DNA of 27,875 nt from a virus. Positions 1,316-27,875 of this stretch are shown piece after piece. Location: the IMG/VR virus record IMGVR_UViG_3300030390_000452, positions 1-27,875 of that record; one strand, given 5' to 3'. A model generated the notes under the pieces. It was not told where the DNA came from, ran no database searches, and saw nothing but the letters and a program-made list of their open reading frames with translations. Made by a program: the position numbers and the translations under genes. Within the stretch, counting starts at the first letter, position 1; the number at the start of each line of letters is the position of its first letter.

Positions 1316-1780
1316 TTATTTTATTATTTTATATACTGTTTTACCAAACTCTTTTTCAGCGAGTAATTTTCTGTTTCTATTTTTATCTACACTTATATAA
1401 CTAACATGTATCCACGATGGATTTTTATCATTACCAAATTCCCATATAATTTGATCAAAATTACAATGATTACATATCCATTCGTACATCTCTGCATTAG
1501 TTTTATGTCCATAGACATCGTCTAAGTCCATTGCCAGACCTTTACAATGCTGTGAACTAGATGATCCTCCTATGGCCTTGTTTAATTCTTCAGAACGAAA
1601 CATGCTATTGATCTTTATTGGTCCACCAACCCATAATCTTAGTGGTTCAAAGATCTTTTCAGCTAACATCTTCATGTTATTAGTTTGCTCTTCATTAGGT
1701 ATATTTTTTATACTATATCTTTTTGCCGTATTTGAGTGAGTTGCTTCTGCAAAAGTAATATGTTCGCTTATTTTTTTCAT
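1316..1780 (-). CDS. M15-family peptidase endolysin
   Basis: This 154-aa protein carries the peptidase M15 (M15_3-type) pattern. NSMFRSEELNKAIGG (58-72) is followed by SSQHCKGLAMDLD (75-87), with zinc ligands His78 and Asp85, and WIHVSY (123-128) gives the third ligand, His125. QIIWEFG (110-116) holds Glu114, a candidate catalytic residue. Such enzymes cut peptide bonds in peptidoglycan stems or cross-links, as D-Ala-D-Ala carboxypeptidases or L-Ala-D-Glu endopeptidases. It has no signal peptide or TM segment, so release would depend on a holin; a candidate lies two genes downstream. Its start is 3 bases after the stop of the 2441-aa gene's neighbour region, at the head of the lysis cluster. 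Which bond it cuts cannot be told from sequence. Confidence 0.9.
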   Translation of the reverse strand: MKKISEHITFAEATHSNTAKRYSIKNIPNEEQTNNMKMLAEKIFEPLRLWVGGPIKINSMFRSEELNKAIGGSSSSQHCKGLAMDLDDVYGHKTNAEMYEWICNHCNFDQIIWEFGNDKNPSWIHVSYISVDKNRNRKLLAEKEFGKTVYKIIK

Positions 1781-1783
1781 AAA

Positions 1784-4700
1784 TTAATTAATTTTTGGAA
1801 ACTTTAGCTTTGGTGATTTAAGTTTAGGTAATTTAAGTAAAGACGGAGGTGACGTACTTTTTTGTTGACTTTCTTCTAAACCTAAATTATATTTATTAAA
1901 CCCTGAAAACAACATTATTCTTTGATAATTTTCATAATCTTTATTCATTGCTCCTTGAAGATTTAAAATCTTTTGATACATTCTATCTAAAGGAAGATTT
2001 ATAAGCCCAGAAGTAAGAGTAGTTCCAGCTTGTATATAGTATTTATTATCTAAACTCCAACCTAACCATTCTGCTTCTGCTTTGTTATACTGTAAGGTAT
2101 TCCAAGCTTTTGTAAATTTTCTAGCTTTTATACCTATTGGAGGTGAGATATCCGCTGCTGTTAAAAATACTTTTAATAGTTTATTTTGTTCTGTGTTTTC
2201 TTCATCAGTTATATTATTAATTTTGAGTCCAATTTTTATTATTCCATTAATAATAGCCATTTTTAAACCAGAACCTTTTAATAAAGTACCAACCCATCCT
2301 TCATAAAATCTTGTGCTTTGAGTTTCCCAATCTTCATCATCTTCATCACCCCACATTTTAGCCATTAAACCTTGTTGTAAATAATTAAATAATACGTTTT
2401 GTATAACAGCATAATACATTATTTTAGAAAAATTATTAGCTGCGTTACCTCTACCTTTATATATATCTTCTGCTGCTTTTTTTATTATTCTACCATATTG
2501 TAATGGTGTGTTCATAAAACTTAATATTAATCTTCCTTCAATAGACGCTTGATTCATAGATATTTTAGAAGGATCTGCAGACTGTTGACTTACTTCTGCT
2601 GTTGTATAAAAATCTTTATATGCTTGAGCCTCAGCTTCTTTTTCAGACATACCACTTTTAACTAATGACTTTATTCTATTTCTATAAAAAACAGCTCCAC
2701 CTGATGCTATTGCAAATGCATCTGCAGCTCTAGTTAAAGTATAACCTTGTTTTAATAAATAAAATATGCCTGCTTTACCTTTGTCTAAAAAACTAGTATA
2801 TTTTGGATTTCTAAGAACATCTAATATTTCAGCTTCTTGTATATCACTCATTAAACCTGCTCTTCTATCTTTTAAATAATCACTGTTCCATAGTGTTAAA
2901 AAATCTTTACTTACTTGAGGAACATTTGCTAAAGCTGCTCCAGCTAAAAAAATATTATTATCACTTGTGTTGATAAAGTTACTAGCAGATATAGTTTGTA
3001 AAAGAGCTGATCGCATATTAAAAAACATTGTAACTCCAATAGAACCATTTACCCAATCAATAAAAGCATTATTTTTTGTAGGTTTATTACTACCTGTTTT
3101 CATTCTATATAATATATCATTTAAAGCTTTAACATATCTACTTCCATAAGCATATTCTAATTTAGCAAGGTTGTCTTTTGTAAAAATTAAATCTACATTT
3201 TCTTGCCATTGTACTAAGTATTTTTTTCTATTTACTTTAGATAAATTATTTTGTACGTCATTTAATATACTTGTGTCTGCCCAGTTTTCTGTTGGCATTA
3301 AATAACCGTTTGGTTGTTTAGATAATAACTTTACTTTTTGCGCAAAAGCTTTTAGTTTTTCATCTTTTCTAACAATAGTACTTAATTTAAAAACATCTTT
3401 TGGTGTTAAACCTGTTATTTCATTTAATTCTCCAGAGTTTAATTCAGGACTAAATGCGTACATGTTATTCCATAAATAAACTCTAATAGCTTCATCATTA
3501 GTAAAATTTTCATATCCAGAGTTTTCTTTAAGTATTTTTTTAATTCCTTTAAAATCTTTTTTTATTAAGTTTTTCCAGTCTCTAAAAGCAGCTTGTCTTG
3601 ATTGCATTAGATTTAACATACCATCACTGTATGGATCTATTAAAGCTTTTCTTAAATAATCTAATTGTTTTTCTCCTTTAGCACCTTTAGCACCTGCTAT
3701 CATATACATTAGTCCTAAAAAGTCTTGATCAGCAGCAGGTAACCATATATCGTATTTACCTTTGTTTTTTCCTGCTCGCTCTGCTATTACTCTACCAATA
3801 ACATCTGCTTCATCTAAACCTTTATTATCTTGTATTATTTGATTTAAACCTTGAGATAAGTTATCAGCATATTTGTTTCTTTCATTATTTAAAGAAAATT
3901 TAATATCAGCAGTTTCTAAAATGTTACTAACTTCTTTGCTTTTACTATTGTCATTGTTTCTAAAATAGAAATCATTATAACCTTGGTTTATTTTATCTAA
4001 TAAATAATAAGCAATTGTTTTATTATTTAAATTACCTAAATTAGGAACTTTAAATTTAATAGCTTTTTTGTTATATTTTATACTTTCAATTTTAGCACCA
4101 TCTAAAACTCTAGCCATATAAAATTGTTGATCTATGTCATTTGCAAAATCTAAAAAATTAGAAATTTTACCATTCATTTTTTCAGCTAAACTAAACTTAA
4201 CAACATCTGACTTTCCTCCTGCTAAATTATTTATAACTTCTGCTCTAGTATTTTCATCTTTTAATATATTATAAAGATCTACATTTTTATTAGCTATTTT
4301 CTTTAAAAATACTTTGTCTCTTAAAGCATTTCTAGCTTCTTGTAAAATTACAACATCACCAAATCTTTCCATTAAAGAAGTTCTTCTATCAAACAAAGCT
4401 GTAGCCCATAAAGGAGTACCTTTTTTAGGGTTTACTTCAATTTCTTCTAACTGAGATAATTCTGATTTTGTATTTTTACCACCATATTTTCTTATTAATC
4501 TAGTTGTTTCTTCTAAACCATAAAAACTTTGTAAAAACTTAACCCTTGTCATTGGTTTCATTTTTATTGGTTTACCTATATCATCATAAGCTTTTAGTCT
4601 AGGTGGTGTTTTTTTAGAATCGTATGTTGATTGTCCAGTTACAGGGTCTATAGGATTGTTTATTACATTCCATATTAATTCCCAGTTATTATACATAAAA

Positions 4701-7700
4701 ACATCTAAATCTGCTCTGTTTTTAAAAGTAATTCTTCTAGCCAATGTTTTAGATAAAACAGCTAATTTTTCTTTAAAGTTTTTAAAATCTAAAGTTTCTA
4801 TATTTGGAGCATTTAGTATTTGTTTTTTTACTTGTGATATTATTACTTTAGCTGGACTTGTTAATTCAGATAAAGCTTTATATGTTTTTACAGGTAAACC
4901 AAACATTAAATCATAAGTTTTAAAAGATTTTAATTCTTTTAATTCATCAATTTCGTTTTCAGTTAAATTTTCTTTAGCTTCTAACTCAATACCACGCTCT
5001 AAATCTTTTAATTCTTTTTTAAGTTCTTTTCTTATTTTAGGATCTTGCTCTGTTTTAAGTTTTTTATTTGCAGGTATACTAGGATCATTGATATCAAAAA
5101 CAACAGAACCTCCTAATGGTATAGCTTCTATTTCTACGTCTTTACCATCTTCATTAGTAAAACCAAAAATAGGATCTTTTAATAATTCTACTAACTTGTT
5201 TTGATTATTTTCAAACTCTAAAGCTTCTTCTTGTAACTCTTCTTCATTGCTTAATTGATTTTCATCTGAAATTTTATTAGCATCAAATTCTTCTGTAAAT
5301 TTTTGAGTAGTAACAGTACCTGTTTTAAGGGCAGTTTTCATTTTATTTCTTAACTGAGCATTTATCCAACCGTTTAAGTTGTTGTTTTCAGTAATAAAAT
5401 TACCTTTACTATTTTTATAACCTTTAACGTCTAATTTGTTTAGTTCATTATTTATTTCGTTAGAACTTAAACCTTGGTCTGTTAATTCTTTTCTTTTATT
5501 TTCTCTTAACTTTAAAAATTCTTTATTAAAATTTCTTATATGAGGTATTAATGCTACCTGAGTTTCAGCTAACATGTTTTCAGCGCTGTAATCTGGTAAG
5601 TTTCCGTATAAAACATCTGCTTTATAAGCTATAACATCTTCATATTGTTGCAAAACTTCATAAAGAACATTGTCTACTTGACGAGTGTTACCCCACTTGT
5701 TTTTGTTGTAAAGTGAGTTTACTTTTGATTTAAATTCATTACCTTGCGTAGCACCACGCATAGAAAATTTTTCATCAAAATCATAAATATCTTCTTCAGG
5801 TTTTATTTCTTTTTTAGGTTTAACAGGTTTTTTTGTTTCAGCAACAACAGTACTTATTTCTTTTTTTAATGCTTCTTTGTCTACTTCAGCACCTTGTTTA
5901 GTTAGTTTTTTAAACGCTTTGTTTTTGTTAAAATTACCTGAATCTAAAGTTGCATTAAAATCTTTTATAAAATTATAAACAGATCTACCTGAATCAAATT
6001 TAATATCACTTCTTCCAAAGTATTGTAATACTTGTCTTAATATATCGCCTAGCTTTGTAAAAATATCTTCATCATATGTAACCGCACCATTACTTATTGC
6101 TTCTGAATACAAAGGTAAAGCTTCTTCCCATTGATTACCTAAAGCTTTATCAACTTTTCTCTTATGTTCTTCTTTAGTTATACTACCAGCCTTTAACTCT
6201 GCGTCATAACCTGCAATTTTTTCAGAATATTTTTTAATATATTGACCAAATCTACGTAGCCATTGATCTGGCATCGCTGTTAGTTTAGAATCTTTCAAAA
6301 CTAGCTTTTCTTGTAGTTTTAGTAATTCTGCAGTAAAAGCTCTACCTATTAAAATTTGAGATTCTGGATCTCCTTTTATAGTTTTATATATTATACCATG
6401 TATAAACTCATGTTGTTTAGTTGTTATAGCTCCATCTTTGGAAGCTAAAGCATTATTAATACCTATGAATTGTCTACCATCTTTCATTTGAATATCCATT
6501 CCATATTGGCCTGCAGTTTTTTCTGCTTTTTTTCTGGTAAAACCAAATTCCTTCATTAAATAATCAACAGCTTCTTCGTTGCTTTCAAATTCTTTGTATA
6601 CAGTGTTTTCTAATGTATTATCTTTTATTGCCTTAACTAATTGTTCAGTTGTTTTTTTAGACATACTATCATAATATGTTCTAGATATTTTTTCTTCTAA
6701 AAGTTTTATTTTTTCTTCAGTAGCAGGTTTAAAAGATTTGTCTTCTGTTTTTAAGTTTTGTCTTAATATGCCAACGGTTTGTAAGTCACCTAATATTTGT
6801 TCAGCAACAGACGCAGAAGTATTAGTTGGCATTCTATTTATATTATTATTAAAAGCATCCATTTCTTCAATAAGCTGATCTGCTTCTTGTTGAGTATATA
6901 TTTCTTGATCTACTTGTTTGGCTAATAGTTTTTTAGCTTTTTTCTTATTATAAGCCATGTAGCTTAAAGCATTAAATCTGTCTATAGCATCCATGCCTAA
7001 AAGTTGTCTTCCAGTTTTCGCTGCTAAATTAAGAGTAACACCAGCACCAGGTATTAAAGCTCCTGCAACAAATGATAAAAGAACAGTGTCAAGAAAATCT
7101 TGACCAGATATAGTATCTTTTAAAAAATTCTTACCAGCCATTTCATTAACATCTCTATTAACGCCATAAACTTCTCCAAACTGTTGTACATTTTCTTGAA
7201 AAACTTCTTTCAAACCTTCGCCAGTAATGTTTAAACCAGTTCTAGCAGCTGATAAAGCTTTTTTAAATCCTGACAAGCCTTCTTTTTTATATATTTTAAA
7301 AGCATTTTCAAGCGTACTTGGTTTAAGTAATTTACCAAATAAAGCATCTGTTGCTTTTGTTTGTGGAGAAATAGGCGCTGTTAACGCATATAATAATCCT
7401 GTTTCTATAGAAGACACAGTTGCTAAATTAGATGCTTCTTCGTCACTAAATCCAGCTTGTCTTGCTTGCTTTAATGTTTCTTCGTAACCTCTAGAAAAAC
7501 CTAAAGTACTTTGACCTATTATAGCATCGGCCATACCTCTTTTAATAGGAATAGTTTTAAGATATTTTCTAGTTTTACCTAGTACTCCTAAACCTTTAGT
7601 AAAACCTCCTACAGCTTGTCTAGTAATTCCCATACCTCTAGTCAATGCTAGTTGAAATATTAAATCTCCAATAACATTAGAACCTGCGTCAAAAGCTCCT

Positions 7701-9109
7701 AACACACTAAAAGCAGTTCCTTTTCTATTACCTTGTCTGGCTTGCGTTCTTATTCTGTCTGCTTCTTCTTGAGTTAAAAAAGGAGTTGCATCAAGAGATC
7801 TTGTTGCGTCTATTATTTTGTTATTAGCGTCTACAACATATCTAGTTTCAGAACTAGGATCTGTATATTCATAACCTTTAGCAAATACAAATCTACCAAA
7901 AGTATGATATTTAGTATCAACAACGCCTAAATCTTCTAAAGCTAATTCTTGTCTTATACTTTCTGAAACTCCTTCAAAGTAGTCACCAGGTAAAATACCA
8001 TAAGCACTAGCACTAAAATTAATCATAGCTTCAGATAAACCATTCCACCCTGACCCAAGATTATCTAATAAAAATTGACCAGTTGTAATGTTTCCCCCAG
8101 TTTGAAGTAGTTTTTGATATTCTATATTATTTTTTTCGTCTTGCTCTTCTAGTTTTTGAGATATTAAAGGAAATTGTTTTTTAATAAATTTTTCATAATT
8201 ATAAACCTTTATGTTTTCAGAAGAAATATTAAACTTAACACCTTTTAAGTCTGGATCAACACCATTTTGTTTTTCATACATAAGCTTTTGCTGCTTAATG
8301 TCTCTTGTTAATTGATCGTTAATATACATGTTTAGATACTGAAGTTTTTTAGCTTCAAAAGCTAAGGCTGGATCATAGTTTTGACCGTAGTTTCTTGTAT
8401 CCATGTCTAATTCTAAAAATCTTTTAAGATCTTTATCAAAACCTCTTTCTTGTAAAAAACCACCAAAATCAAGTACGTTTGTGTTTGTTTCACCTAAAGC
8501 TTCACTATCATATACTTCTTCTACTAAACTAGAATCTTCTAAACTTCCTTGATATATGTAAGGTTGATTTAATTTTTGTATATCTATGTAACTAGCTACT
8601 TCATCAGGAGTTTTTACTTGATAAGTTTTTATTTTTCTTTTAGCATTATCTATTGCTGTTTGTGACGTAGGATTAATTACAGAAATTCTTTCATTTTGAG
8701 TATAACCTGCTAATTCTAATTCTTCTGCAGTTATAAAATTTTGATCTACAGCTAACTGTACATTTACATCGTCAAATAACCCAAATTTATTTTTTTCTAA
8801 ATTTTTTGGATCTCCTAATTTACCCATGCTTGTAGCCATATTGTCATAATAAGACTGTGGCTTTACTGGTAAACCATATTTATCTACTTCAGCTGGAGAT
8901 TCCGATAAAGTATCTTCCGATATTAATTCCCCATTGTCTTGCGATGCGAACATGTTTGGTAGAGGCGCTACATTTGCATCCGTTGCAACACCCTCCACTT
9001 TTTTTAGTTCTGCACCAGGATTTTCTGACAACCATATTATTCTATCTGTTTGAGAATAATTAGTTAAATCTATCTCCTCTCCGTTTATAATATATATTTT
9101 TTGTTCCAT
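1784..9109 (-). CDS. 2441-aa internal/ejected polyvalent-type protein with zincin motif
   Basis: This protein covers about a quarter of the window and sits where T7 has gene 16. From the N-terminus it has an acidic leader (INGEEIDL at 8-15) and hydrophobic Gly/Ala-rich stretches near 466-490 and 668-700. A zincin motif, H900-E-F-I-H904, follows T-T-K-Q; the acidic EEALPLYSEAI (995-1005) may hold a third zinc ligand. Three KFS[ML] junctions lie at 1114-1117, 1638-1641 and 1737-1740, followed by helical charged regions. The C-terminus (about 2020-2330) is hydrophobic, with MFFNMRSALLQTISASN, FMNTPLQYGRIIKKAAEDIY and IMYYAVIQNVLFNYLQQG. From memory the C-terminus resembles large polyvalent-protein-associated domains such as LPD38. 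Ejection with the DNA is inferred from synteny. I see no lytic transglycosylase signature. The start is one base after the upstream stop (TAAAATG). Confidence 0.75.
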   Translation of the reverse strand: MEQKIYIINGEEIDLTNYSQTDRIIWLSENPGAELKKVEGVATDANVAPLPNMFASQDNGELISEDTLSESPAEVDKYGLPVKPQSYYDNMATSMGKLGDPKNLEKNKFGLFDDVNVQLAVDQNFITAEELELAGYTQNERISVINPTSQTAIDNAKRKIKTYQVKTPDEVASYIDIQKLNQPYIYQGSLEDSSLVEEVYDSEALGETNTNVLDFGGFLQERGFDKDLKRFLELDMDTRNYGQNYDPALAFEAKKLQYLNMYINDQLTRDIKQQKLMYEKQNGVDPDLKGVKFNISSENIKVYNYEKFIKKQFPLISQKLEEQDEKNNIEYQKLLQTGGNITTGQFLLDNLGSGWNGLSEAMINFSASAYGILPGDYFEGVSESIRQELALEDLGVVDTKYHTFGRFVFAKGYEYTDPSSETRYVVDANNKIIDATRSLDATPFLTQEEADRIRTQARQGNRKGTAFSVLGAFDAGSNVIGDLIFQLALTRGMGITRQAVGGFTKGLGVLGKTRKYLKTIPIKRGMADAIIGQSTLGFSRGYEETLKQARQAGFSDEEASNLATVSSIETGLLYALTAPISPQTKATDALFGKLLKPSTLENAFKIYKKEGLSGFKKALSAARTGLNITGEGLKEVFQENVQQFGEVYGVNRDVNEMAGKNFLKDTISGQDFLDTVLLSFVAGALIPGAGVTLNLAAKTGRQLLGMDAIDRFNALSYMAYNKKKAKKLLAKQVDQEIYTQQEADQLIEEMDAFNNNINRMPTNTSASVAEQILGDLQTVGILRQNLKTEDKSFKPATEEKIKLLEEKISRTYYDSMSKKTTEQLVKAIKDNTLENTVYKEFESNEEAVDYLMKEFGFTRKKAEKTAGQYGMDIQMKDGRQFIGINNALASKDGAITTKQHEFIHGIIYKTIKGDPESQILIGRAFTAELLKLQEKLVLKDSKLTAMPDQWLRRFGQYIKKYSEKIAGYDAELKAGSITKEEHKRKVDKALGNQWEEALPLYSEAISNGAVTYDEDIFTKLGDILRQVLQYFGRSDIKFDSGRSVYNFIKDFNATLDSGNFNKNKAFKKLTKQGAEVDKEALKKEISTVVAETKKPVKPKKEIKPEEDIYDFDEKFSMRGATQGNEFKSKVNSLYNKNKWGNTRQVDNVLYEVLQQYEDVIAYKADVLYGNLPDYSAENMLAETQVALIPHIRNFNKEFLKLRENKRKELTDQGLSSNEINNELNKLDVKGYKNSKGNFITENNNLNGWINAQLRNKMKTALKTGTVTTQKFTEEFDANKISDENQLSNEEELQEEALEFENNQNKLVELLKDPIFGFTNEDGKDVEIEAIPLGGSVVFDINDPSIPANKKLKTEQDPKIRKELKKELKDLERGIELEAKENLTENEIDELKELKSFKTYDLMFGLPVKTYKALSELTSPAKVIISQVKKQILNAPNIETLDFKNFKEKLAVLSKTLARRITFKNRADLDVFMYNNWELIWNVINNPIDPVTGQSTYDSKKTPPRLKAYDDIGKPIKMKPMTRVKFLQSFYGLEETTRLIRKYGGKNTKSELSQLEEIEVNPKKGTPLWATALFDRRTSLMERFGDVVILQEARNALRDKVFLKKIANKNVDLYNILKDENTRAEVINNLAGGKSDVVKFSLAEKMNGKISNFLDFANDIDQQFYMARVLDGAKIESIKYNKKAIKFKVPNLGNLNNKTIAYYLLDKINQGYNDFYFRNNDNSKSKEVSNILETADIKFSLNNERNKYADNLSQGLNQIIQDNKGLDEADVIGRVIAERAGKNKGKYDIWLPAADQDFLGLMYMIAGAKGAKGEKQLDYLRKALIDPYSDGMLNLMQSRQAAFRDWKNLIKKDFKGIKKILKENSGYENFTNDEAIRVYLWNNMYAFSPELNSGELNEITGLTPKDVFKLSTIVRKDEKLKAFAQKVKLLSKQPNGYLMPTENWADTSILNDVQNNLSKVNRKKYLVQWQENVDLIFTKDNLAKLEYAYGSRYVKALNDILYRMKTGSNKPTKNNAFIDWVNGSIGVTMFFNMRSALLQTISASNFINTSDNNIFLAGAALANVPQVSKDFLTLWNSDYLKDRRAGLMSDIQEAEILDVLRNPKYTSFLDKGKAGIFYLLKQGYTLTRAADAFAIASGGAVFYRNRIKSLVKSGMSEKEAEAQAYKDFYTTAEVSQQSADPSKISMNQASIEGRLILSFMNTPLQYGRIIKKAAEDIYKGRGNAANNFSKIMYYAVIQNVLFNYLQQGLMAKMWGDEDDEDWETQSTRFYEGWVGTLLKGSGLKMAIINGIIKIGLKINNITDEENTEQNKLLKVFLTAADISPPIGIKARKFTKAWNTLQYNKAEAEWLGWSLDNKYYIQAGTTLTSGLINLPLDRMYQKILNLQGAMNKDYENYQRIMLFSGFNKYNLGLEESQQKSTSPPSLLKLPKLKSPKLKFPKIN

Positions 9110-9110
9110 T

Positions 9111-10856
9111 TTATTTAATATTAAGAGCTTTGTTCATTCTTATTATATATTCTTCTTCAGTTTCTTCTGCGTTATCAGCACCCATAGGATTAGCTTTCAT
9201 CCAATCGGTTTTTTTAGCCCTTTGCATTAATATAGTTTTATTTGAAATATTTTTTCTTTCGCTAGCAGTACTATTATCTAAAGCAAATTTAAGTCTATCA
9301 ACAGCAGATTCTAAATTATAATTACCTGCAAAAGAAATACTATTACCTTTTACTTTATAAAATCCTTCTTTACCATAAAGACCTTCTGCAATTGCTCGTG
9401 CTCCTTTACCATTGTTTGCTTTTTTAGTTTTGCTTCTATCGTAGTACTCTTTATTAGTTACGCTTGAAAGTTGATCGTTTGGTTGAGTTAACCAAAGGTC
9501 TATTATTTCGTCTTTATCCATAAGAGTAGTTCCAGGAGAAATTCTATTTAAGTTTTCAGAAATTATTTCTATGTTTGTTTTCTGTGAGTTTTCATCAGCT
9601 CCCATCATTATATTATTATAATACTCAGCTCTATAGCCTACTGGCTCCACAGGATCTTGTGCTTTTACTATAGCTTTATTACGTGATTTATACCATCTTC
9701 CGTCAGCATCTTGTTTTAAATTAGATGTGTTTGCTTTTACTATTTGCTCAAACAAAGCTTCTTTAAATTGATCATCAGTAGGGTTTATTGTTTGATAATC
9801 ATTTTCAAAACCTTGATTTAATTTTTGTAAATCAATGTTCCAAGCATTTGCAGCTGTTTGTACATTAGTATTTACACCTGCTACTTTTTGCGTAAGTATA
9901 CCTTCCATTTCAGTTCTTAGAGCATCCATGTTTAGATAATTTCTAATTTCTGTTGTTCTTTGTGAGTTTTCTTCGTTACCTTCTATTTTTATTGTATCGT
10001 AAACAATAGTATCTTCAGTCCAAAATCTTGGGTCAATTTGACCGTTATTTGCTATAACACCTATTCCATTACCAGCTTTGCTTTTTTCTTTAGTTTTCAT
10101 CATATCTAAAGATTCATTTACTATTTGAGGCACGTTAGATACAAAGTCAAAATTACTTCCTTCATTAACTTGAGCATTCCATTTTCTAGCACTTATTATT
10201 TTTTCTCTATATTCTCCTTGTACTGTTTTTCCATCTTCAACCCCTGTTTCATAACCTGAAACTTTTACCATTATATCATTTGACTCAGGATCATAAACCA
10301 TTTCAAATTGACCATCAACAACGTCGCCTATTGAATTAAGAAAAAATTGATTATTAGCTATTTCGTTTTCGTCTTTACCTAGTATAGTTATTTTTTTACC
10401 TATAGTAGCCGCGTTTTGTTTCCAGTATTCTCCTGTAGCTGCAAAACTAGTAACTGTTTTTTTAGTTAAATCTAATAAATCATAGTAGTCTCTTATAGCT
10501 TTTTGTGCAGATAATCTTTTTTCATTATCTCCAAACTGAGTTTTTAAATAAATTTGAGCTTGTGTAGCAATATCAATTCTACCGTTTAAAGTTCTTTGTA
10601 ATTCAGTGTCTATTGCAGAGGTTTTTGGAGCAGAAGAAAGATTGCTCATCTGTTCTAAATTCCAAACATCTGCAGCGCCTTGAACGTTTTGCATGCGTTG
10701 TATAACCGCTTGATTTTTTCTTTCTTCAGCTTGCTCTCTTTTTAAACGTTGAGATTCATCAGCCTGTCTACTTCTATCGCCTGTCATTAATACTTGTAAC
10801 GCAGCCATAGTAGGATTCATGCCAGTTAAAGGTTTTGGATTATCGTATGCTCCCAT
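9111..10856 (-). CDS. internal virion protein, T7 gp15 position
   Basis: This 581-aa soluble protein has no TM or signal segment. The N-terminal ~60 residues (RQADESQRLKREQAEERKNQ) look like a coiled coil and the middle is mixed alpha/beta (DGQFEMVYDPESNDIMVKVS). The C-terminus is charged. I recognise no catalytic motif. The assignment rests on order: a small Gly/Ala-rich coiled-coil protein upstream and a giant protein immediately downstream, the same order as T7 gp14-gp15-gp16, whose products form the internal core and DNA-ejection conduit. T7 gp15 is larger (about 750 aa). The gene is 16 bases from its upstream neighbour and one base from its downstream neighbour. Confidence 0.6.
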   Translation of the reverse strand: MGAYDNPKPLTGMNPTMAALQVLMTGDRSRQADESQRLKREQAEERKNQAVIQRMQNVQGAADVWNLEQMSNLSSAPKTSAIDTELQRTLNGRIDIATQAQIYLKTQFGDNEKRLSAQKAIRDYYDLLDLTKKTVTSFAATGEYWKQNAATIGKKITILGKDENEIANNQFFLNSIGDVVDGQFEMVYDPESNDIMVKVSGYETGVEDGKTVQGEYREKIISARKWNAQVNEGSNFDFVSNVPQIVNESLDMMKTKEKSKAGNGIGVIANNGQIDPRFWTEDTIVYDTIKIEGNEENSQRTTEIRNYLNMDALRTEMEGILTQKVAGVNTNVQTAANAWNIDLQKLNQGFENDYQTINPTDDQFKEALFEQIVKANTSNLKQDADGRWYKSRNKAIVKAQDPVEPVGYRAEYYNNIMMGADENSQKTNIEIISENLNRISPGTTLMDKDEIIDLWLTQPNDQLSSVTNKEYYDRSKTKKANNGKGARAIAEGLYGKEGFYKVKGNSISFAGNYNLESAVDRLKFALDNSTASERKNISNKTILMQRAKKTDWMKANPMGADNAEETEEEYIIRMNKALNIK

Positions 10857-10872: not shown

Positions 10873-11541
10873 TTAACCACCTATTACACTACCGATACTA
10901 CCTAAAAGGTTACTAGCCGCATTGTATTGATTTGCTTCTGCAGCTGCCGCTGCTGTTTGATTACTATAATGTTGTTGTTGTGCGTTGTCTAATAAACCAG
11001 CCGCTCTATTCATTTCAGAAACTTGTCTATTTTCTCTAGTGCTAAACTCAAATGTTTGACCCATAACATCAGCGTTTTGCAAACGTTGTTGTTCAGCCAT
11101 TTTTTGTTCTTGTAATTTTTGAGCTCCTTTAGCAACTAACTTATCATTAGCAGCTTCTTGTAATTGTATACTAGCACTAATTCCTTTTTTACTTTGTAGC
11201 GCTGCTTGAGCTAAAGCTGTTGCTCCACCGGCTCCCGCACCAGTAGCCCTTAATGTATCTAGAGTATTCGCTAAAGCTATATCTGATTGTTCTGCTTGAA
11301 ATTCAGCCGCTTGAGTAGCAACTCCAAGGTTTTCATAAGGATTACTTAATTCACCACTAGTATCAGTAACATTAGCATAAGGATTTATGATAGGTTGTCT
11401 GCCATCTTCTAAAGTTTGTAGTTCTCTTGCTAGTCTATCTCTTTCGTTTTTAGAGTCTCTAGCTCTAGCCCTAGCACTTGATGCCGCTTTTCCTGCTCCG
11501 ACCATACCTATTATACCTTGGCCTATTGTTGCTGCTCCCAT
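10873..11541 (-). CDS. internal virion protein, T7 gp14-like
   Basis: This 222-aa protein starts with a Gly/Ala-rich hydrophobic segment (MGAATIGQGIIGMVGAGKAA, 1-20), followed by a basic stretch (RARARDSKNERDRLAREL), a long Ala/Gln-rich coiled-coil region (AAEFQAEQSDIALANTLDTL through KLQEQKMAEQQRLQ) and a Gly-rich end (NLLGSIGSVIGG). Length, composition and a membrane-active N-terminus match the T7 gp14 class (196 aa), which is thought to insert in the outer membrane during DNA ejection. The genes before and after it fit the T7 13-14-15-16 order. The family match is by architecture, not by a diagnostic motif. Confidence 0.65.
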   Translation of the reverse strand: MGAATIGQGIIGMVGAGKAASSARARARDSKNERDRLARELQTLEDGRQPIINPYANVTDTSGELSNPYENLGVATQAAEFQAEQSDIALANTLDTLRATGAGAGGATALAQAALQSKKGISASIQLQEAANDKLVAKGAQKLQEQKMAEQQRLQNADVMGQTFEFSTRENRQVSEMNRAAGLLDNAQQQHYSNQTAAAAAEANQYNAASNLLGSIGSVIGG

Positions 11542-11547
11542 ATTAAT

Positions 11548-11958
11548 TTATTTTGTTTTGTATATTATATTATGTTTTTCTTTACTAATAATATAATTAA
11601 GTTCTTTTAATTTATTTAAAACTTTATCATAAGGTGTTGTACACCATACTCCTTCAGCGCCTTGTTTAAAACATTTTTCAACAGTTTTATCTATTAACAA
11701 TGTTATAATTTCTGATCTGTTTTCTTTTTTATAATCTGGATCTGCAATTAAATAATCACAATACCAAACTGGTGAGTTTGTTTTAAAAATAAAAACACCT
11801 GCTATTATTTTTTTGTTAACAACGGCAACTAAACCTTGTTTGTCAAACGGTAAAAGCAATGTGTTTAAAGGTTTACCACTATAATGTTGCCACCACAAAC
11901 TTAATAAAGGTATATCTTTTTGTTCGTTTAATTCTCTTATAGAGATTAAGTTTTTCAT
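11548..11958 (-). CDS. GNAT-fold-like protein, T7 gp13 position
   Basis: This 136-aa protein has the order of elements expected of a GCN5-related acetyltransferase fold: an N-terminal helix with LLSLWWQHY, paired strands GLVAVVNKKIIAGVFIF (about 42-58), a strand WYCDYLIADPDY ending in a bulge, a helix SEIITLLIDKTVEKCFKQG and a final GVWCTTPYDK...LKELNYI. The acetyl-CoA loop (R/Q-x-x-G-x-G/A) is degenerate here (KKENRSE), so activity is doubtful. The size equals T7 gp13 (138 aa) and it directly precedes the gp14-like gene as in T7. T7-group gp13 proteins have been linked to the same fold. It is probably a virion-assembly protein rather than a metabolic enzyme. Confidence 0.55.
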   Translation of the reverse strand: MKNLISIRELNEQKDIPLLSLWWQHYSGKPLNTLLLPFDKQGLVAVVNKKIIAGVFIFKTNSPVWYCDYLIADPDYKKENRSEIITLLIDKTVEKCFKQGAEGVWCTTPYDKVLNKLKELNYIISKEKHNIIYKTK

Positions 11959-13329: not shown

Positions 13330-16300
13330 CTAACTAGGCCAACCAATAGTTTTGAACCATGTACTAGATACAAAAGGTGGTGATCCACTAGCTGGTGACA
13401 CTAGTTGCGGGTTTGGCGGAGGTGATTGCAATACAGTGTCGTAAGCTAAAGTAAGACTTACAGGGCTACTGCATGTGGTTACTGTTGTAAAATCAATTCT
13501 ACAGTTAACAAGAACGCATTTACTCCAGTCATAAGAAGCTCCTGTTGCTGGATCATTACCTGAATCACCAGGTCTAACATTAGCGTTTTGTTGTGCTTGA
13601 CTAGGATTAAAAGGTTCTAATTCTGCTATTATAGAAAAAGAATCACTACTAATAGAATTAGCTACAGTTATAGGAAAACTTCCACTTACCGCTGTGCCAT
13701 CTCCATACGCAGGGCCGTTAAAATTAGTAACGGTATTATAACCACTAAAGCTAGCTACAAATTGTTGGTTTGAACCATTTTTAACAACTTTAGCATATAT
13801 ATACTGTGTGCTACTTGTCCAGTTTGCAACTTCTCCAACCCATGTAGGTAATGCAGCGGTTGATGAACTTGTTGGACAACCGGGAGTTATACCAACGGCT
13901 CCAGTTGGAGGAGCTTGCCATTGTAAAGCTGGATCAACATAACCAGGGTTTCCAGATGTTATATTAGATGTATACCAATTAGAGACTACTCCAGTATAAG
14001 CAGTAGCTATTGGAGTATATTGTATTGCTAACTCACTAGATGCTGAAGTTCCATTTTGATCTATTAATTGCACTGTTATTTCGTGAAGAGTTGCTGATTG
14101 AAAATCCCCATTTAAAGTTCCATTAGGTCCATTTGTACCAGTTCTTTCAACCCATATACCATAAAAATTTTCATTAGTAGCAGTTGTACATGTGTTTTGA
14201 TTAAATTGACCTTGTCCTTTTAGAAAATAATAATTTCTAATATCTGTATCACTAAATGGTGATGATTGATTTTGACCTGTTACGGCTCCATAAAAATTAC
14301 CATTTGCATCTTGCCATCTACAAGATGAAATTACCCATTGTAAGTCTACTGTTCTGTCACAAGGAGCGCAACTACCGTTATAACCTCTAACAACACCAGG
14401 ACCACTATTAGCAAAAAAACCATAACCAGTTTCTTTCAGTATTGTAGTGTCAGTTAGTAAAGGTTGAGGAGCTTGTGTTAGTTCTATTACAGGATTATCA
14501 TTTATTAATGTTCTAGTAAATTGTTGTGTTGAAAGTGTTCCGTCGGCTTGTGTGAACTGAATAGTAAATTGATATTTTTGATTATACTCAAAATTAGTTA
14601 AAGCAGCGTGTGGTACACCTGCAATGTTATCTTGTGCTAAATCTATTCTAAAAGATCCACCACCAGCAGCGCTTATTATAAACTCTGTATTTCTATTTAC
14701 ACCAGTTAAAACACCATGTGGAAAGCTTGGATCAAAAGAGAACACAGACAATAAAACAGCTGTTGAAGTAACATCGTTACCGCCTGGAGTTAGTGGAAAA
14801 AACGGTGTAGTTAGTTGTGCGCCACCGCAATCTCCTTCATTATGTAGCCACGTAAACGAAGATAGTCCTGTTATACGAGTACCTGAAGTTGATATTGCAA
14901 GATTTAAATCAGATATTAAACCTGTAGTTGAACTTTCATAAAACAAGTCTAAGTTAGAAACAAATGGAGCGGTTTCATATACAGATAAATCCATAAAATC
15001 AGGATATTCCTCACCAGCAGATTGAGTGTTATATAAACTTTGAATAATACCAATACTTTTTTGCGTATTTACTTTACCTATAAAAGGTTTTTGATCTACA
15101 TCAAATATAGCATTATTGTTTATTTTATCGGTTGCAGGAGCTGTTCCAGCTTCTCCATCATAATCTATGTCTGGAAAAACTTTTTGTATACTACCTATTA
15201 ATTCTACAATATCAGGAGTTGAACCAGAAGGCGTAAATTGTTCATTACTTACTGTTGTAGCAATATTTGTAACTCTACCATACATGCTTAGGTTACTATT
15301 AAATTGAGTGTCTTGAGCTCCAACGTCGTTAAGTTCTCTTGGAACTTTATTAATATTATCGTGAGTCAAAACTATAAAAGCTGTACTTCCTATTTCAGTT
15401 GTATTACCTTGTATTGGATAACCATCTATAATTCCAGGTAAATAAACATTATAATATTCTTGTTCTTGTTGTTTAATTACTATTCTATATGAATAAAACC
15501 CTGTTACATTTATATCGTATACAAAATTAGTAACAGTTAAATCTGTTTTTGGTTCTAGTCTATCTGTGGGGTTAGACGCTGGAATACTATCACCTATAAA
15601 CAAATAATTGTCTGCTATTTCATAGCTTGTTCTTATGTCTCTAGTTGTAGTTCCGCTTGCTTGTTCTATTTCAACATAATCTTGGTATTTTCCTCTTAAT
15701 TTACTAGGTACTAAAAATGTAGTACTTGCGCTAGTTACATTCTTTATTTGGTATCTATATTTAGAACTATATAACAGTTGAGCTTTTAATTCATGATTTG
15801 AAGCAGCAGGTTGTCCACTTGTAAAAGTTACCAAAACTTGATCATCTCCATTGTCTGTAATTCCATATGTGGCAGAATCAACTAATACCCAACCACCACC
15901 TTGATTTAAATATAAGGTAAAAATATTATTACTATCAATATCTTGCACTGCAATATTTACAAAAGTATAAGCAACTTGCGCTGCTACAGTATTTAAAACT
16001 TGAACACTTAAGTCGGTAAATGACGGGAAAGGTGAAGAAAAACCATTTGCAGTAGATGCTATAGCCTGGTAAGTATCGGGTACAGCATATAAAGGTGTTA
16101 AATCTCCATTAACACTAATTATTTCGTCAAATCTTAAAGTTAAAGTATCACCTAACCAACCTAAGGTTTGGCCAGCATTTTCAGATGGTCTATATTTACT
16201 AAAAAAATTAGACCCTTCAGTTGGCTCGCCACCAGCAACTAAAACATTATCTTTAGATGATAATATAACGTCTGTTTGTCTACCCCATTTATCTGCTAGT

Positions 16301-18114
16301 ATAACACCAACTTGATAGTTTCTGTTTTGTTTAAGAGAATGTTGAGGATATTCTTCAAATTCTTGAGCATTTTTATCAGAACTTCCAGCAGCATAATTTA
16401 ATGACAATGGAGCATCATATCCTTGAGTAAAATTACCATACATAACTCTATTACCTGATATTTCCTGTGCTCTAGCCCTTACAGGCACTTTGTCAAAAAC
16501 TCTAGTAGTTTCGTCTGTTGGTAAAGTTTTAAAAGGAACAGTAGACTCATAAGTATACTGATATATGTTTGTGTTGTTTAAATTAGATATAAACGTAGAA
16601 TTTACTGGAACGTTTTGTAATATTTTATAAGCTAAAGCATCAGATTCTTTATATATAATATCTATTTCTTCTACTTTATAATCATTAATAATGTTTAATG
16701 AAGGAAGTTCAATGTTTAGTATTACATTGTTAATACTGTTTTGCATAAAATCAATTATTGTTGATCTCATAGCGTCATCTTCGTCTTCATTAACAAATCT
16801 ACCTTCTTGTAAAGGTATATAACAGTCTTGAGAAAATGGAGCTATTAAAGAATATTCTCCATCATCAAATTTAAATCTATAGCTAAACCTAACAAATTTA
16901 TCTTTAATAAATTCTGGATCACCTGACCAACCTTTAAAACCTGGTGTTTTAGTAATTCTAACAGCAAAACCTAATATTGATTCAGCAGCTGTTGCTGTTT
17001 CTATTGTTGGTACAGCGTTACTGTCTAAAATAGAATAATATTTTAAGCCACCTTTTATCCAGTACTTTGCGTTAGTATATATATTTTCAAAATCATTAGC
17101 ATTAGTTGCAGCTGTTCTTTGTCCAGAAGGTTGTGAATCCCAACCAGTAGAGTTGTTGCTAGCGCTAGACGTCGCGGTCCAATTGTCTGTAGATTTTATT
17201 GAAGCAACCCCACTAACGCCAACCTGTGTATTTAAATTTTGATACTCTTGTTCATCTGCAATGTCATAACCAAATGGCGCTAAGTTTCGTGTGTCTTTTA
17301 TAGCCCAGCTATTATATAGTTTTTGATAAACAACTCCATTATCTAAGTCATTGTTATAATAACACCAACAACCTACTTCTTCAGTATTGTATTGAACCCA
17401 GTCCGCTCTAGTTACAGCTTCTGGTATAGGATCACCGTTTCTATATCTTTTTGTATTTAAATTTATTGTAGCCCAAGTATCACCACCTATTAATAAAGAA
17501 GGCGCATCTTGTGCGTCGCTCATTGTGCTTGGTTTCAATGCAGAAACACTTCTTAAGTCTATTAATTGTGGTGCTTCATATGGAAAAAATTTACATACAG
17601 TTACACTTTCTTCATCTTTATAATAAGTGTTGTTTACATCTGATGCCGCCGTAGCTACATTTATATTTCTAGGTTGGTTTCTATTGTCAGTAAAAAACAA
17701 TAAACTTTCTAACAAGTTTACTCCATATATAGGTGCTGTAGTAGCAAAGTTTAAAAAATAACCAGTTACTAATAGAATAGGAATATTACTTCCAGAAGTT
17801 GGTTGCCATCTATATATACTACATGTATTAGAGCTTTTTGCATTAGGCACAGCCTCAGTAGGTGTAAAATCTGTAATAAAATAATACACAAAACCATTTT
17901 TTTCATCAACAAAAGTACCTATTGTTTCTATAGATCCTTTGTTGTCAAAAACTAATTCGTTTCCTAAAATAGACTCTAAAGCTCCTACGTCATCGTTCTC
18001 TGATCTTGACACTGCTATATTTTGCCCATCTCTATATTCATTGTTAGGAATTATTCTATCATCTAAGTCTTTATTCATTTTAGACTTGATAAAACTATTT
18101 TTATTTTCTGCCAT
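13330..18114 (-). CDS. giant tail muzzle/stabilisation protein
   Basis: This 1594-aa beta-rich protein starts with SKMNKDLDDRIIPNNEYRDG (11-30) and DDVGALESILGNELV, the usual N-terminus of beta-propeller tail stabilisation (P22 gp10/crAss-like muzzle) proteins. FFTDNRNQPRNINV lies near 138, RFSYRFKFDDGEYSLIAPFS near 405, IDIIYKESDALAYKI near 480, NRNYQVGVILADKWGRQTDV near 595 and DLFYESSTTGLISDLN near 1055. The rest, to 1594, is Thr/Ser/Gly/Asn-rich and probably Ig- or cadherin-like beta domains, with several Cys (CGG, CAPC) and a Pro-rich end (LQSPPPNPQLVSPASGSPPF). It should form the tail nozzle and perhaps carry host contacts, as no fibre gene is seen here. It ends in TAG followed directly by TAA, so readthrough into the next gene is excluded. 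Confidence 0.8.
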   Translation of the reverse strand: MAENKNSFIKSKMNKDLDDRIIPNNEYRDGQNIAVSRSENDDVGALESILGNELVFDNKGSIETIGTFVDEKNGFVYYFITDFTPTEAVPNAKSSNTCSIYRWQPTSGSNIPILLVTGYFLNFATTAPIYGVNLLESLLFFTDNRNQPRNINVATAASDVNNTYYKDEESVTVCKFFPYEAPQLIDLRSVSALKPSTMSDAQDAPSLLIGGDTWATINLNTKRYRNGDPIPEAVTRADWVQYNTEEVGCWCYYNNDLDNGVVYQKLYNSWAIKDTRNLAPFGYDIADEQEYQNLNTQVGVSGVASIKSTDNWTATSSASNNSTGWDSQPSGQRTAATNANDFENIYTNAKYWIKGGLKYYSILDSNAVPTIETATAAESILGFAVRITKTPGFKGWSGDPEFIKDKFVRFSYRFKFDDGEYSLIAPFSQDCYIPLQEGRFVNEDEDDAMRSTIIDFMQNSINNVILNIELPSLNIINDYKVEEIDIIYKESDALAYKILQNVPVNSTFISNLNNTNIYQYTYESTVPFKTLPTDETTRVFDKVPVRARAQEISGNRVMYGNFTQGYDAPLSLNYAAGSSDKNAQEFEEYPQHSLKQNRNYQVGVILADKWGRQTDVILSSKDNVLVAGGEPTEGSNFFSKYRPSENAGQTLGWLGDTLTLRFDEIISVNGDLTPLYAVPDTYQAIASTANGFSSPFPSFTDLSVQVLNTVAAQVAYTFVNIAVQDIDSNNIFTLYLNQGGGWVLVDSATYGITDNGDDQVLVTFTSGQPAASNHELKAQLLYSSKYRYQIKNVTSASTTFLVPSKLRGKYQDYVEIEQASGTTTRDIRTSYEIADNYLFIGDSIPASNPTDRLEPKTDLTVTNFVYDINVTGFYSYRIVIKQQEQEYYNVYLPGIIDGYPIQGNTTEIGSTAFIVLTHDNINKVPRELNDVGAQDTQFNSNLSMYGRVTNIATTVSNEQFTPSGSTPDIVELIGSIQKVFPDIDYDGEAGTAPATDKINNNAIFDVDQKPFIGKVNTQKSIGIIQSLYNTQSAGEEYPDFMDLSVYETAPFVSNLDLFYESSTTGLISDLNLAISTSGTRITGLSSFTWLHNEGDCGGAQLTTPFFPLTPGGNDVTSTAVLLSVFSFDPSFPHGVLTGVNRNTEFIISAAGGGSFRIDLAQDNIAGVPHAALTNFEYNQKYQFTIQFTQADGTLSTQQFTRTLINDNPVIELTQAPQPLLTDTTILKETGYGFFANSGPGVVRGYNGSCAPCDRTVDLQWVISSCRWQDANGNFYGAVTGQNQSSPFSDTDIRNYYFLKGQGQFNQNTCTTATNENFYGIWVERTGTNGPNGTLNGDFQSATLHEITVQLIDQNGTSASSELAIQYTPIATAYTGVVSNWYTSNITSGNPGYVDPALQWQAPPTGAVGITPGCPTSSSTAALPTWVGEVANWTSSTQYIYAKVVKNGSNQQFVASFSGYNTVTNFNGPAYGDGTAVSGSFPITVANSISSDSFSIIAELEPFNPSQAQQNANVRPGDSGNDPATGASYDWSKCVLVNCRIDFTTVTTCSSPVSLTLAYDTVLQSPPPNPQLVSPASGSPPFVSSTWFKTIGWPS

Positions 18115-26321: not shown

Positions 26322-27875
26322 TTATATTATTTTTGAACTAATTCCTTCGTTATTATATTTTTTAAACCCTAGTGGTTTTGACACTAATGGCGCTTTAAAA
26401 ATAGGTGTGTATCTATGCTTGTTACAACCCATGAGTGCTAAACCAGAACTTATAGAAGCATCATGTTTAGTTCTGTTATTTATGTCAAATTGAGACCAGT
26501 CTTCTAATGTTCTTTGAAAATAAATATTTCCATACCCTTCGTCTAAAAGACCAACGTGTGATTCAATATAAGATTCTATTGCAGCAGCGTGTGCTTGTTT
26601 TATGTCTTCACTTGAATTAGGTATTCCACCTATTTCTTTTTCTGTTATTGAAAGTTTATTCCAAACTTTATCTGGTCTATTCATTGCAAAACCTCTATAA
26701 CCTCTACGTTTAAAATGATAAAGTAGTCTTGGTTTATTATTTTCAGCCAATATAGGCATTCCATAAAATATACAAGCCATTAACACATCTTCAAAAAATA
26801 TTTCAGCAGTTTGTGGTCTTGCTATGTATTCTAAAAAAAACATACTAGGTGGTACGTCTTCCATACTAAATTTTGTTAATCCGTGTAAAGATCCATTAGA
26901 ACCTCTTTTATCAACTGTTCCTGATATATCATAACTATCACAACCAAAGCATCCGCAGTGTTCGTTTCCAGGATATTTTATACCATTTTTTATTATTACT
27001 TTATTTTGTAATTGAATCGGCGGAACCCATGAAACTTTAAACCTACCGTTATTGTTAGGTAAAAATAAAACTTTAGAGTCTTTAATTCCATCTTGCCACA
27101 TGAAAGAACCGTTTGTTATTAACACTTCATTATTAACACCTTCATTATAGTCTATTTGTTGATAAATTTTAGTTAGATTAAATAAAGACATTTTAGACTC
27201 ATCTCTAAAAGCGTGTTTAGTTGTACGTGGAAACTGTCTGTAAAACTCGTTTAATCCATCTTGATCGTCCTTAAGACCTTCTACCTCATTCTCCCAATAT
27301 TCAATAACCCCAATTTTGATTGGTGCTCCATGAGGTCCATGCACTTTTTTTGATGGGGTTTCGAAGACAGGTTGGCCATAAGAATCAATGTATCCTTCGT
27401 AATTCCATTCCATAGGTATGAACAAAGAATAGAGTCCTGAACGTGTTTGTCCATTTGCGTTTCTTTTTTTAACATCTGAGTCATCATATAATTTTTTAAA
27501 ATTTCTACCTCCTTTATCTAAAGCGTTTGATGTTGATCCCATCATACACTTACCTATAATTCTAGAACCTAATCTAAGGGTGGTTTTCGTAACACGCCAG
27601 TTGTTGAGGATGTTGTTGGGCCTTTCCCATTTACCGGACTCATCGTGGACGAGGAGTTTGAGTTTTTCACCATCATAGGCATTATCACCTGTATTTTTCC
27701 AGTCGATGGTCGTATCAAGCCCGGCAAGATCCTCGGCTTTGTCGGAAGAGGTAATACTTCTTCTGGTAAATTTACTAGCTGGGACTCTGTAGGCCAACTC
27801 GGTCTTTGGACGGTCCATTCCGTCCTGGATGGGCTTGAAAAAGAATGGATAATTAACGGATATTGGTACAACCTT
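26322..27875 (-). CDS. terL: large terminase subunit, partial (N-terminus outside window)
   Basis: The frame stays open to the right edge, giving at least 517 residues; Met at 27818 is internal, since VVPISVNYPFFFKPIQDG precedes it in frame. Numbering from that Met, Walker B is LLVHDE (55-60) and the coupling motif is CMMGSTSN (91-98). The nuclease domain has GCFGCDSYDISGT with Asp294, a candidate Glu339 or Glu343 in AEIFFEDVLMACIFYG, and Asp453 in RTKHDASISSG, together a likely RNase H-type metal triad. Walker A lies beyond the window. The enzyme cuts concatemeric DNA and drives it through the portal. Resemblance is strongest to crAss-like and marine Bacteroidetes phage terminases. Bases about 27600-27840 are GC-rich compared with the rest of the gene. 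Confidence 0.9.
   Translation of the reverse strand, partial: KVVPISVNYPFFFKPIQDGMDRPKTELAYRVPASKFTRRSITSSDKAEDLAGLDTTIDWKNTGDNAYDGEKLKLLVHDESGKWERPNNILNNWRVTKTTLRLGSRIIGKCMMGSTSNALDKGGRNFKKLYDDSDVKKRNANGQTRSGLYSLFIPMEWNYEGYIDSYGQPVFETPSKKVHGPHGAPIKIGVIEYWENEVEGLKDDQDGLNEFYRQFPRTTKHAFRDESKMSLFNLTKIYQQIDYNEGVNNEVLITNGSFMWQDGIKDSKVLFLPNNNGRFKVSWVPPIQLQNKVIIKNGIKYPGNEHCGCFGCDSYDISGTVDKRGSNGSLHGLTKFSMEDVPPSMFFLEYIARPQTAEIFFEDVLMACIFYGMPILAENNKPRLLYHFKRRGYRGFAMNRPDKVWNKLSITEKEIGGIPNSSEDIKQAHAAAIESYIESHVGLLDEGYGNIYFQRTLEDWSQFDINNRTKHDASISSGLALMGCNKHRYTPIFKAPLVSKPLGFKKYNNEGISSKII

What the first reader, a model, noticed from the sequence alone, without database searches (positions are those of the whole stretch)
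1784..9109. A 2441-aa zincin-bearing megaprotein in the T7 gp16 position
The sequence shows one uninterrupted 2441-codon gene at the end of the ejection module, with HEFIH at residues 900-904, hydrophobic stretches in both halves and a polyvalent-type C-terminus. In T7, the protein at this position carries a lytic transglycosylase and is ejected into the host. Here no transglycosylase motif is visible and a metallopeptidase motif is present. The phage may deliver a protease into the host at entry, use it for virion maturation, or process the megaprotein itself.
Basis: partly seen in the sequence, partly recalled or inferred. Interest (0 to 1): 0.65.

Follow-up and report, generated by a model that had tools for sequence, protein, structure and literature searches.

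The report
Phage megaprotein with conserved zinc-protease signature
A marine virus of flavobacteria has one giant gene, placed where related viruses encode a protein thought to be injected into the host, and nearly every relative, however diverged, keeps the four residues of a zinc-dependent protease in it, so the protein probably carries a working protease, as other giant phage proteins of this kind are thought to.

Summary
A 2441-codon gene runs on the minus strand (9109 to 1784), with HEFIH at residues 900-904. It is a real zincin-type signature. In 47 of 47 full-length relatives sharing its C-terminal module there is exactly one HExxH (chance total 0.20). In an unanchored alignment of 18 relatives, most at 20-36% identity, H, E and H are invariant and a downstream Glu (window E996, likely third zinc ligand) nearly so. 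AlphaFold2 gives the zincin order of elements at moderate confidence. Foldseek found no PDB zincin, and Pfam MPTase-PolyVal and LPD38 do not match. The gene order (portal, scaffold, capsid, tail, 222 aa, 581 aa, giant) is that of podophage ejection triplets, closest to N4 gp52-gp51-gp50; N4 gp50 has an HExxH domain followed by a large helical region. Relatives carry other effector domains (HAD phosphatase, P-loop kinase); the window clade keeps only an inactivated HAD stub. So this is a new family of the known 'polyvalent protein' class, probably ejected, with an apparently intact peptidase. Self-processing is favoured over host-target cleavage because the protease is kept while other enzymes come and go. 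Virion location and cleavage are inferred, not shown.

The parts
1784..9109 (-). Megaprotein gene, 2441 aa (P0001)
   Evidence: Open frame; full-length relatives at 35-97% identity in IMG/VR
6740..9109 (-). N-terminal region, residues 1-790, variable
   Evidence: Alignment A5, 27-56% identity to most relatives; no database match
7019..7099 (-). Hydrophobic segment, residues 671-697, possible membrane contact
   Evidence: Kyte-Doolittle maximum 1.87; most members have a hydrophobic peak upstream of HExxH, but only 10 of 47 above 1.6
5774..6742 (-). Zincin-like metallopeptidase domain, residues 790-1112
   Evidence: A3; AlphaFold2 mean pLDDT 76, helix, three strands, HExxH helix, Glu helix; four invariant columns H-E-H-E in 24 divergent members
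6398..6412 (-). HEFIH, residues 900-904: two zinc ligands and general base
6122..6127 (-). E995-E996 in WEEALPLYSEA; E996 the likely third zinc ligand
   Evidence: E996 in 39/40 and E995 in 32/40 non-redundant members; E996 invariant in A10
5300..5764 (-). Helical domain, residues 1116-1270, possibly like sigma-70 region 2 (tentative)
   Evidence: HTH_16 20.9 bits against cut-off 22; best PDB hit a sigma factor, E=0.39, not significant
4202..5764 (-). Conserved middle module, residues 1116-1636, function unknown
   Evidence: 67% mean column identity in the window clade
3815..4042 (-). Inactivated stub of a HAD phosphatase domain running into the start of the C-terminal module, residues 1690-1765
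   Evidence: hhalign to HAD-bearing relatives, probability 97.2, E=3.6e-11; catalytic DD replaced by NN
2210..3892 (-). Core C-terminal helical module, residues 1740-2300, shared by the whole family
   Evidence: A6 profile hits 16 of 43 related records, 14 of them at E<1e-140; Gundel_1 gp074 E=1e-8
9111..10856 (-). 581-aa protein, medium member of the presumed ejection triplet
   Evidence: Gene order matches N4 gp51 and phi38:1 gp100; no sequence match
10873..11541 (-). 222-aa protein, small member of the presumed ejection triplet
   Evidence: phmmer 2.3e-9 to Gundel_1 gp72, annotated virion structural protein and two genes before its giant protein

Best explanation
It is a polyvalent ejection protein of a flavobacterial podophage. 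It is probably packaged in the capsid and delivered at entry with the 222-aa and 581-aa proteins. The N-terminal part, with one hydrophobic segment, and the conserved C-terminal helical module are the delivery parts (inferred). In between lies a zincin-type peptidase using H900, H904, E996 and base E901, predicted to be active because the residues are conserved across the family. I think it most likely cuts the megaprotein itself, in the head or after delivery, to free its modules. Shown by computation: the zincin signature, family conservation, module turnover, gene position. Inferred: virion location, ejection, catalysis, self-cleavage.
For: HExxH in 47/47 relatives against 0.20 expected; H, E, H invariant and the Glu near-invariant in an unanchored alignment with 23% mean column identity; Glu in 39/40. 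AlphaFold2 order of elements matches the zincin MPTase core described in PMC5512222. Profile match to the HExxH regions of Elemovirus gp18 (E=1.8e-7) and Gundel_1 gp074 (E=5.9e-6), both annotated structural proteins. One member scores Peptidase_M78 at E=5.6e-4, just under the cut-off. Synteny with phi38:1 and Elemovirus and the same small-medium-giant order as N4 gp52-51-50; DEV gp73-72-71 are described as ejection proteins (PMC10925440). Module turnover: HAD intact in some, stub here; P-loop kinase in L185; insert of about 770-800 aa in several. The peptidase signature is the part never lost, which favours a processing role.
Against: Foldseek found no PDB zincin. Pfam MPTase-PolyVal does not match. 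No cleavage site was identified: the KFS[LM] junction motif is largely confined to the window clade, and the copy at residue 1737 looks like inherited sequence at the start of the C-terminal module. N4 vRNAP, with an MPTase domain, is packaged uncut (PMC5512222). Structural annotations of relatives are partly transfers by similarity.
Confidence: 0.55

Rival explanations
1. Same ejected protein, but the zincin is a host-directed protease that cuts a flavobacterial target (for example a defence or envelope protein) right after entry.
For: Polyvalent proteins are proposed to carry effectors acting on the host (PMC5512222); relatives carry other candidate effectors.
Against: A host-directed effector would be expected to be lost or swapped like the HAD domain, yet the HExxH is universal.
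Confidence: 0.25
2. The HExxH domain binds metal but is now a structural or regulatory part needed for packaging or ejection, without peptidase activity.
For: The region with the MPTase domain in N4 vRNAP is required for encapsidation although the protein is packaged uncut (PMC5512222); the N4 structure paper reports no proteolysis for C1 in the passages read (PMC12633501).
Against: The general base E901 is as invariant as the ligands; a purely structural site would not need it.
Confidence: 0.15
3. The HExxH domain is a different metalloenzyme, such as an alpha-ketoglutarate HExxH hydroxylase, not a peptidase.
For: The N4 paper notes HExxH also in radical-SAM-associated enzymes of that kind (PMC12633501).
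Against: The HExxH plus Glu pattern and order of elements fit zincins; the sub-threshold hits include putative zinc peptidases (DUF3267, M78).
Confidence: 0.04

Closest known systems
Phage N4 gp50 (virion RNA polymerase), C1/C2 domains
   Same: Giant third protein of a small-medium-giant triplet; HExxH (HELVH 2228) followed by a large helical region; ejected
   Different: No RNA polymerase domain was recognised here; no significant sequence similarity
Polyvalent proteins with zincin-like MPTase (Iyer et al. 2017, PMC5512222)
   Same: Large multidomain phage protein beside virion genes, zincin-like domain, variable effectors
   Different: Does not match Pfam MPTase-PolyVal or LPD38; the paper's 12 MPTase clades could not be compared one by one here
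Tenacibaculum phage Gundel_1 gp074
   Same: Same C-terminal module (E=1e-8), HEFGH at 1337, same preceding small gene
   Different: Most of the rest is not alignable; the only isolate found with this C-terminus
T7 gp16
   Same: Last and largest gene of the ejection triplet
   Different: T7 gp16 has a lytic transglycosylase domain (established knowledge); none here, a zincin-like domain instead

Membership tests
Zincin-like metallopeptidase | HExxH | tested here: met
   47/47 full-length relatives
Zincin-like metallopeptidase | Glu on a following helix as third ligand | tested here: met
   E996 in 39/40, on a predicted helix
Zincin-like metallopeptidase | Three-stranded sheet with flanking helices | tested here: inconclusive
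   AlphaFold2 order fits; Foldseek finds no PDB zincin
Zincin-like metallopeptidase | Bound zinc and peptidase activity | not testable with these tools
   Needs biochemistry
Phage polyvalent proteins | Several unrelated enzymatic domains in one virion-linked protein | tested here: met
   For the family: zincin-like domain, HAD phosphatase signature, P-loop kinase; the window copy itself has one recognisable enzyme
Phage polyvalent proteins | Encoded among virion genes | tested here: met
MPTase-PolyVal (PF18818) | Match to the Pfam model | tested here: not met
   No match at E<=10
LPD38 (PF18857) | Match to the Pfam model | tested here: not met
   No match at E<=10, though no control genome matched either; none in relatives
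Podophage ejection triplet (T7 gp14-16, N4 gp52-50) | Adjacent small, medium, giant genes after tail genes | tested here: met
Podophage ejection triplet (T7 gp14-16, N4 gp52-50) | Presence in virion and ejection | not testable with these tools
   Needs proteomics
T7 gp16 | Lytic transglycosylase domain | tested here: not met
   No Pfam match

The most novel reading that the evidence does not exclude
The giant protein is a virion-delivered package in which an obligatory built-in zincin releases host-takeover modules, including a sigma-factor-like domain that redirects host RNA polymerase, replacing the virion RNA polymerase of N4-like phages.
Probability: 0.08. Interest if true: 0.8.

Novelty: new member of a known kind. 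Interest (0 to 1): 0.42.

Why it matters
Why giant ejected phage proteins carry a metallopeptidase is open; in N4 the domain has been seen, but the passages read give it no function. This family shows the signature kept without exception over large sequence divergence, even as neighbouring enzymes are gained, inactivated or lost, which argues for an essential role. The family has a cultured member (Gundel_1), so self-processing against host cleavage can be tested directly.

Tried and rejected
KFS[LM] motif as universal cleavage site: enriched at module junctions in the window clade but absent or at chance level in most divergent members, and one copy looks like inherited sequence. LPD38 and MPTase-PolyVal: no match. 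Homology with N4 C2 or NTD: none; N4 C1 aligns on HExxH only, probability 2%. Foldseek on the zincin model in PDB and BFVD and on residues 1116-2300 in PDB: no match at E<=0.001; the second model is low confidence, pLDDT 61. Sigma-region-2 reading: suggestive by eye, no significant hit. PDB profile searches: none significant. Literature search for virion proteomics of these relatives found no direct detection of the giant protein.

Full report
Observation. The window holds an uninterrupted 2441-codon gene on the minus strand, 9109 to 1784. HEFIH lies at residues 900-904 and is the only HExxH. His makes up only 0.2% of residues, so the chance expectation is 0.0007. Pfam and PHROGs give no significant match for the protein, and tblastn finds nothing in 50,697 phage records. 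One hydrophobic segment stands out, residues 671-697.

Setting. The record is a 29,437-base IMG/VR virus fragment. The structural genes match Cellulophaga phage phi38:1 gp90-98 and Flavobacterium Elemovirus gp29-21 in the same order. The portal relatives in the phage collection are all flavobacterial phages apart from one unassigned environmental genome. A related C-terminus lies in a contig of a Flavobacteriaceae MAG; a second, weaker one lies in a contig binned as Woesearchaeota, possibly a binning error. A flavobacterial host is therefore likely. After the tail genes come a GNAT-like gene, a 222-aa gene, a 581-aa gene and the giant gene. The 222-aa protein matches Gundel_1 gp72, two genes before its own giant protein. 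N4 has the same order, gp52 (small), gp51 (medium), gp50 (3500 aa), and the DEV proteins in this order are described as ejection proteins equal to gp14-16 of podophages such as T7 (PMC10925440). Giant proteins in this position in phi38:1, Elemovirus and Gundel_1 are annotated structural proteins, partly by similarity transfer.

Family. Searches of viral contigs returned full-length relatives at 35-97% identity and more divergent ones sharing the C-terminal module. In 47 of 47 proteins longer than 2000 aa there is exactly one HExxH; the summed chance expectation is 0.20. The 47 include close relatives of one another (35 window-clade or near), so they are not 47 independent cases; the divergent ones carry the weight. 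In an alignment of 18 members (all but one at 20-36% identity to the first) made without anchoring, H, E and H are invariant and a downstream Glu nearly so; before the C-terminal region only two other columns are fully invariant. In 24 zincin windows only H, E, H and that Glu (window E996) are invariant; these windows were cut around HExxH, so the Glu is the independent evidence there. The spacing from the first His to the Glu ranges from 51 to 96 residues.

Domain. AlphaFold2 on residues 790-1112 with 14 sequences gave mean pLDDT 76 and the order helix, strand, helices, two strands, HExxH helix, then helices including the WEE helix. This fits the core described for polyvalent-protein MPTases (PMC5512222). 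Foldseek found no PDB zincin. A relative with a related zincin region (L184) reaches Peptidase_M78 at E=5.6e-4, just below cut-off, and the window segment has a weak DUF3267 putative zincin hit. Profile comparison links the domain to the HExxH regions of Elemovirus gp18 (1.8e-7) and Gundel_1 gp074 (5.9e-6); these are single-pair E-values. Two lines, ligand conservation and secondary structure, support a zincin; the fold itself is not proven.

Modules. Several divergent relatives carry a HAD-type phosphatase signature upstream of the C-terminal module; PHROG polynucleotide kinase families match five members. No PDB HAD protein was matched, so the HAD reading rests on its motifs and the PHROG hits. 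L185 also has a zeta-toxin-like P-loop kinase there. The window protein retains only the C-terminal stub of the HAD domain, with the DD pair replaced by NN (hhalign probability 97.2, E=3.6e-11). L105, L109 and L110 carry an insert of about 770-800 aa with KFSL motifs at both ends. The region after the zincin resembles sigma-70 region 2 by eye in divergent members, without statistical support.

Mechanism. The peptidase signature is never lost while other enzymes are. This favours a role in the protein's own handling (processing in the head or after delivery) over cutting a particular host target. N4 vRNAP, however, is packaged uncut although it has an MPTase domain (PMC5512222), so processing, if any, may occur after ejection. 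No cleavage site could be named.

Novelty. MPTase domains in phage polyvalent proteins and the autoprocessing idea are published (PMC5512222), and an HExxH domain in an ejected giant protein has been seen structurally in N4 (PMC12633501). What is new here is a family without close relatives among the isolates searched, showing complete retention of the site over deep divergence and decay of a neighbouring enzyme.

Noticed in passing
window 3815-4042, and L173-L175, L182, L185-L188, L190, L191: HAD-type phosphatase signature (FDFDDT..LTAR..K..DD) in divergent relatives, reduced to an inactivated stub in the window clade.
   Followed up: yes
L185 residues 2298-2483 of its giant protein: Zeta-toxin-like P-loop kinase domain (E=4.5e-12) next to HAD motifs, a possible kinase-phosphatase combination.
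   Followed up: partly
window 5300-5764; L184, L186, L190-L192: Helical domain resembling sigma-70 region 2 by eye; database support not significant.
   Followed up: partly
L105, L109, L110 (insert near window residue 1640): Optional insert of about 770-800 aa containing a WCTG..GDFYI motif, flanked by KFSL sequences.
   Followed up: partly
window 26322-27818: The terminase large subunit looks N-terminally truncated at the window's end; in the record the frame runs on to at least 734 aa and holds a short unread stretch (X in the translation).
   Followed up: yes
window 11548-11958: Small GNAT-like gene conserved in place among the tail and ejection genes of phi38:1, Elemovirus, Panino and MW202828.
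   Followed up: no
window 13330-18114: 1594-aa tail-region protein carrying a Fib_succ_major domain at residues 209-354 (E=6.6e-20), a stretch to which no part of the phi38:1, Elemovirus or MW202828 homologues aligned.
   Followed up: no
window 1316-1780: Peptidase M15 gene directly after the giant gene, likely endolysin.
   Followed up: no
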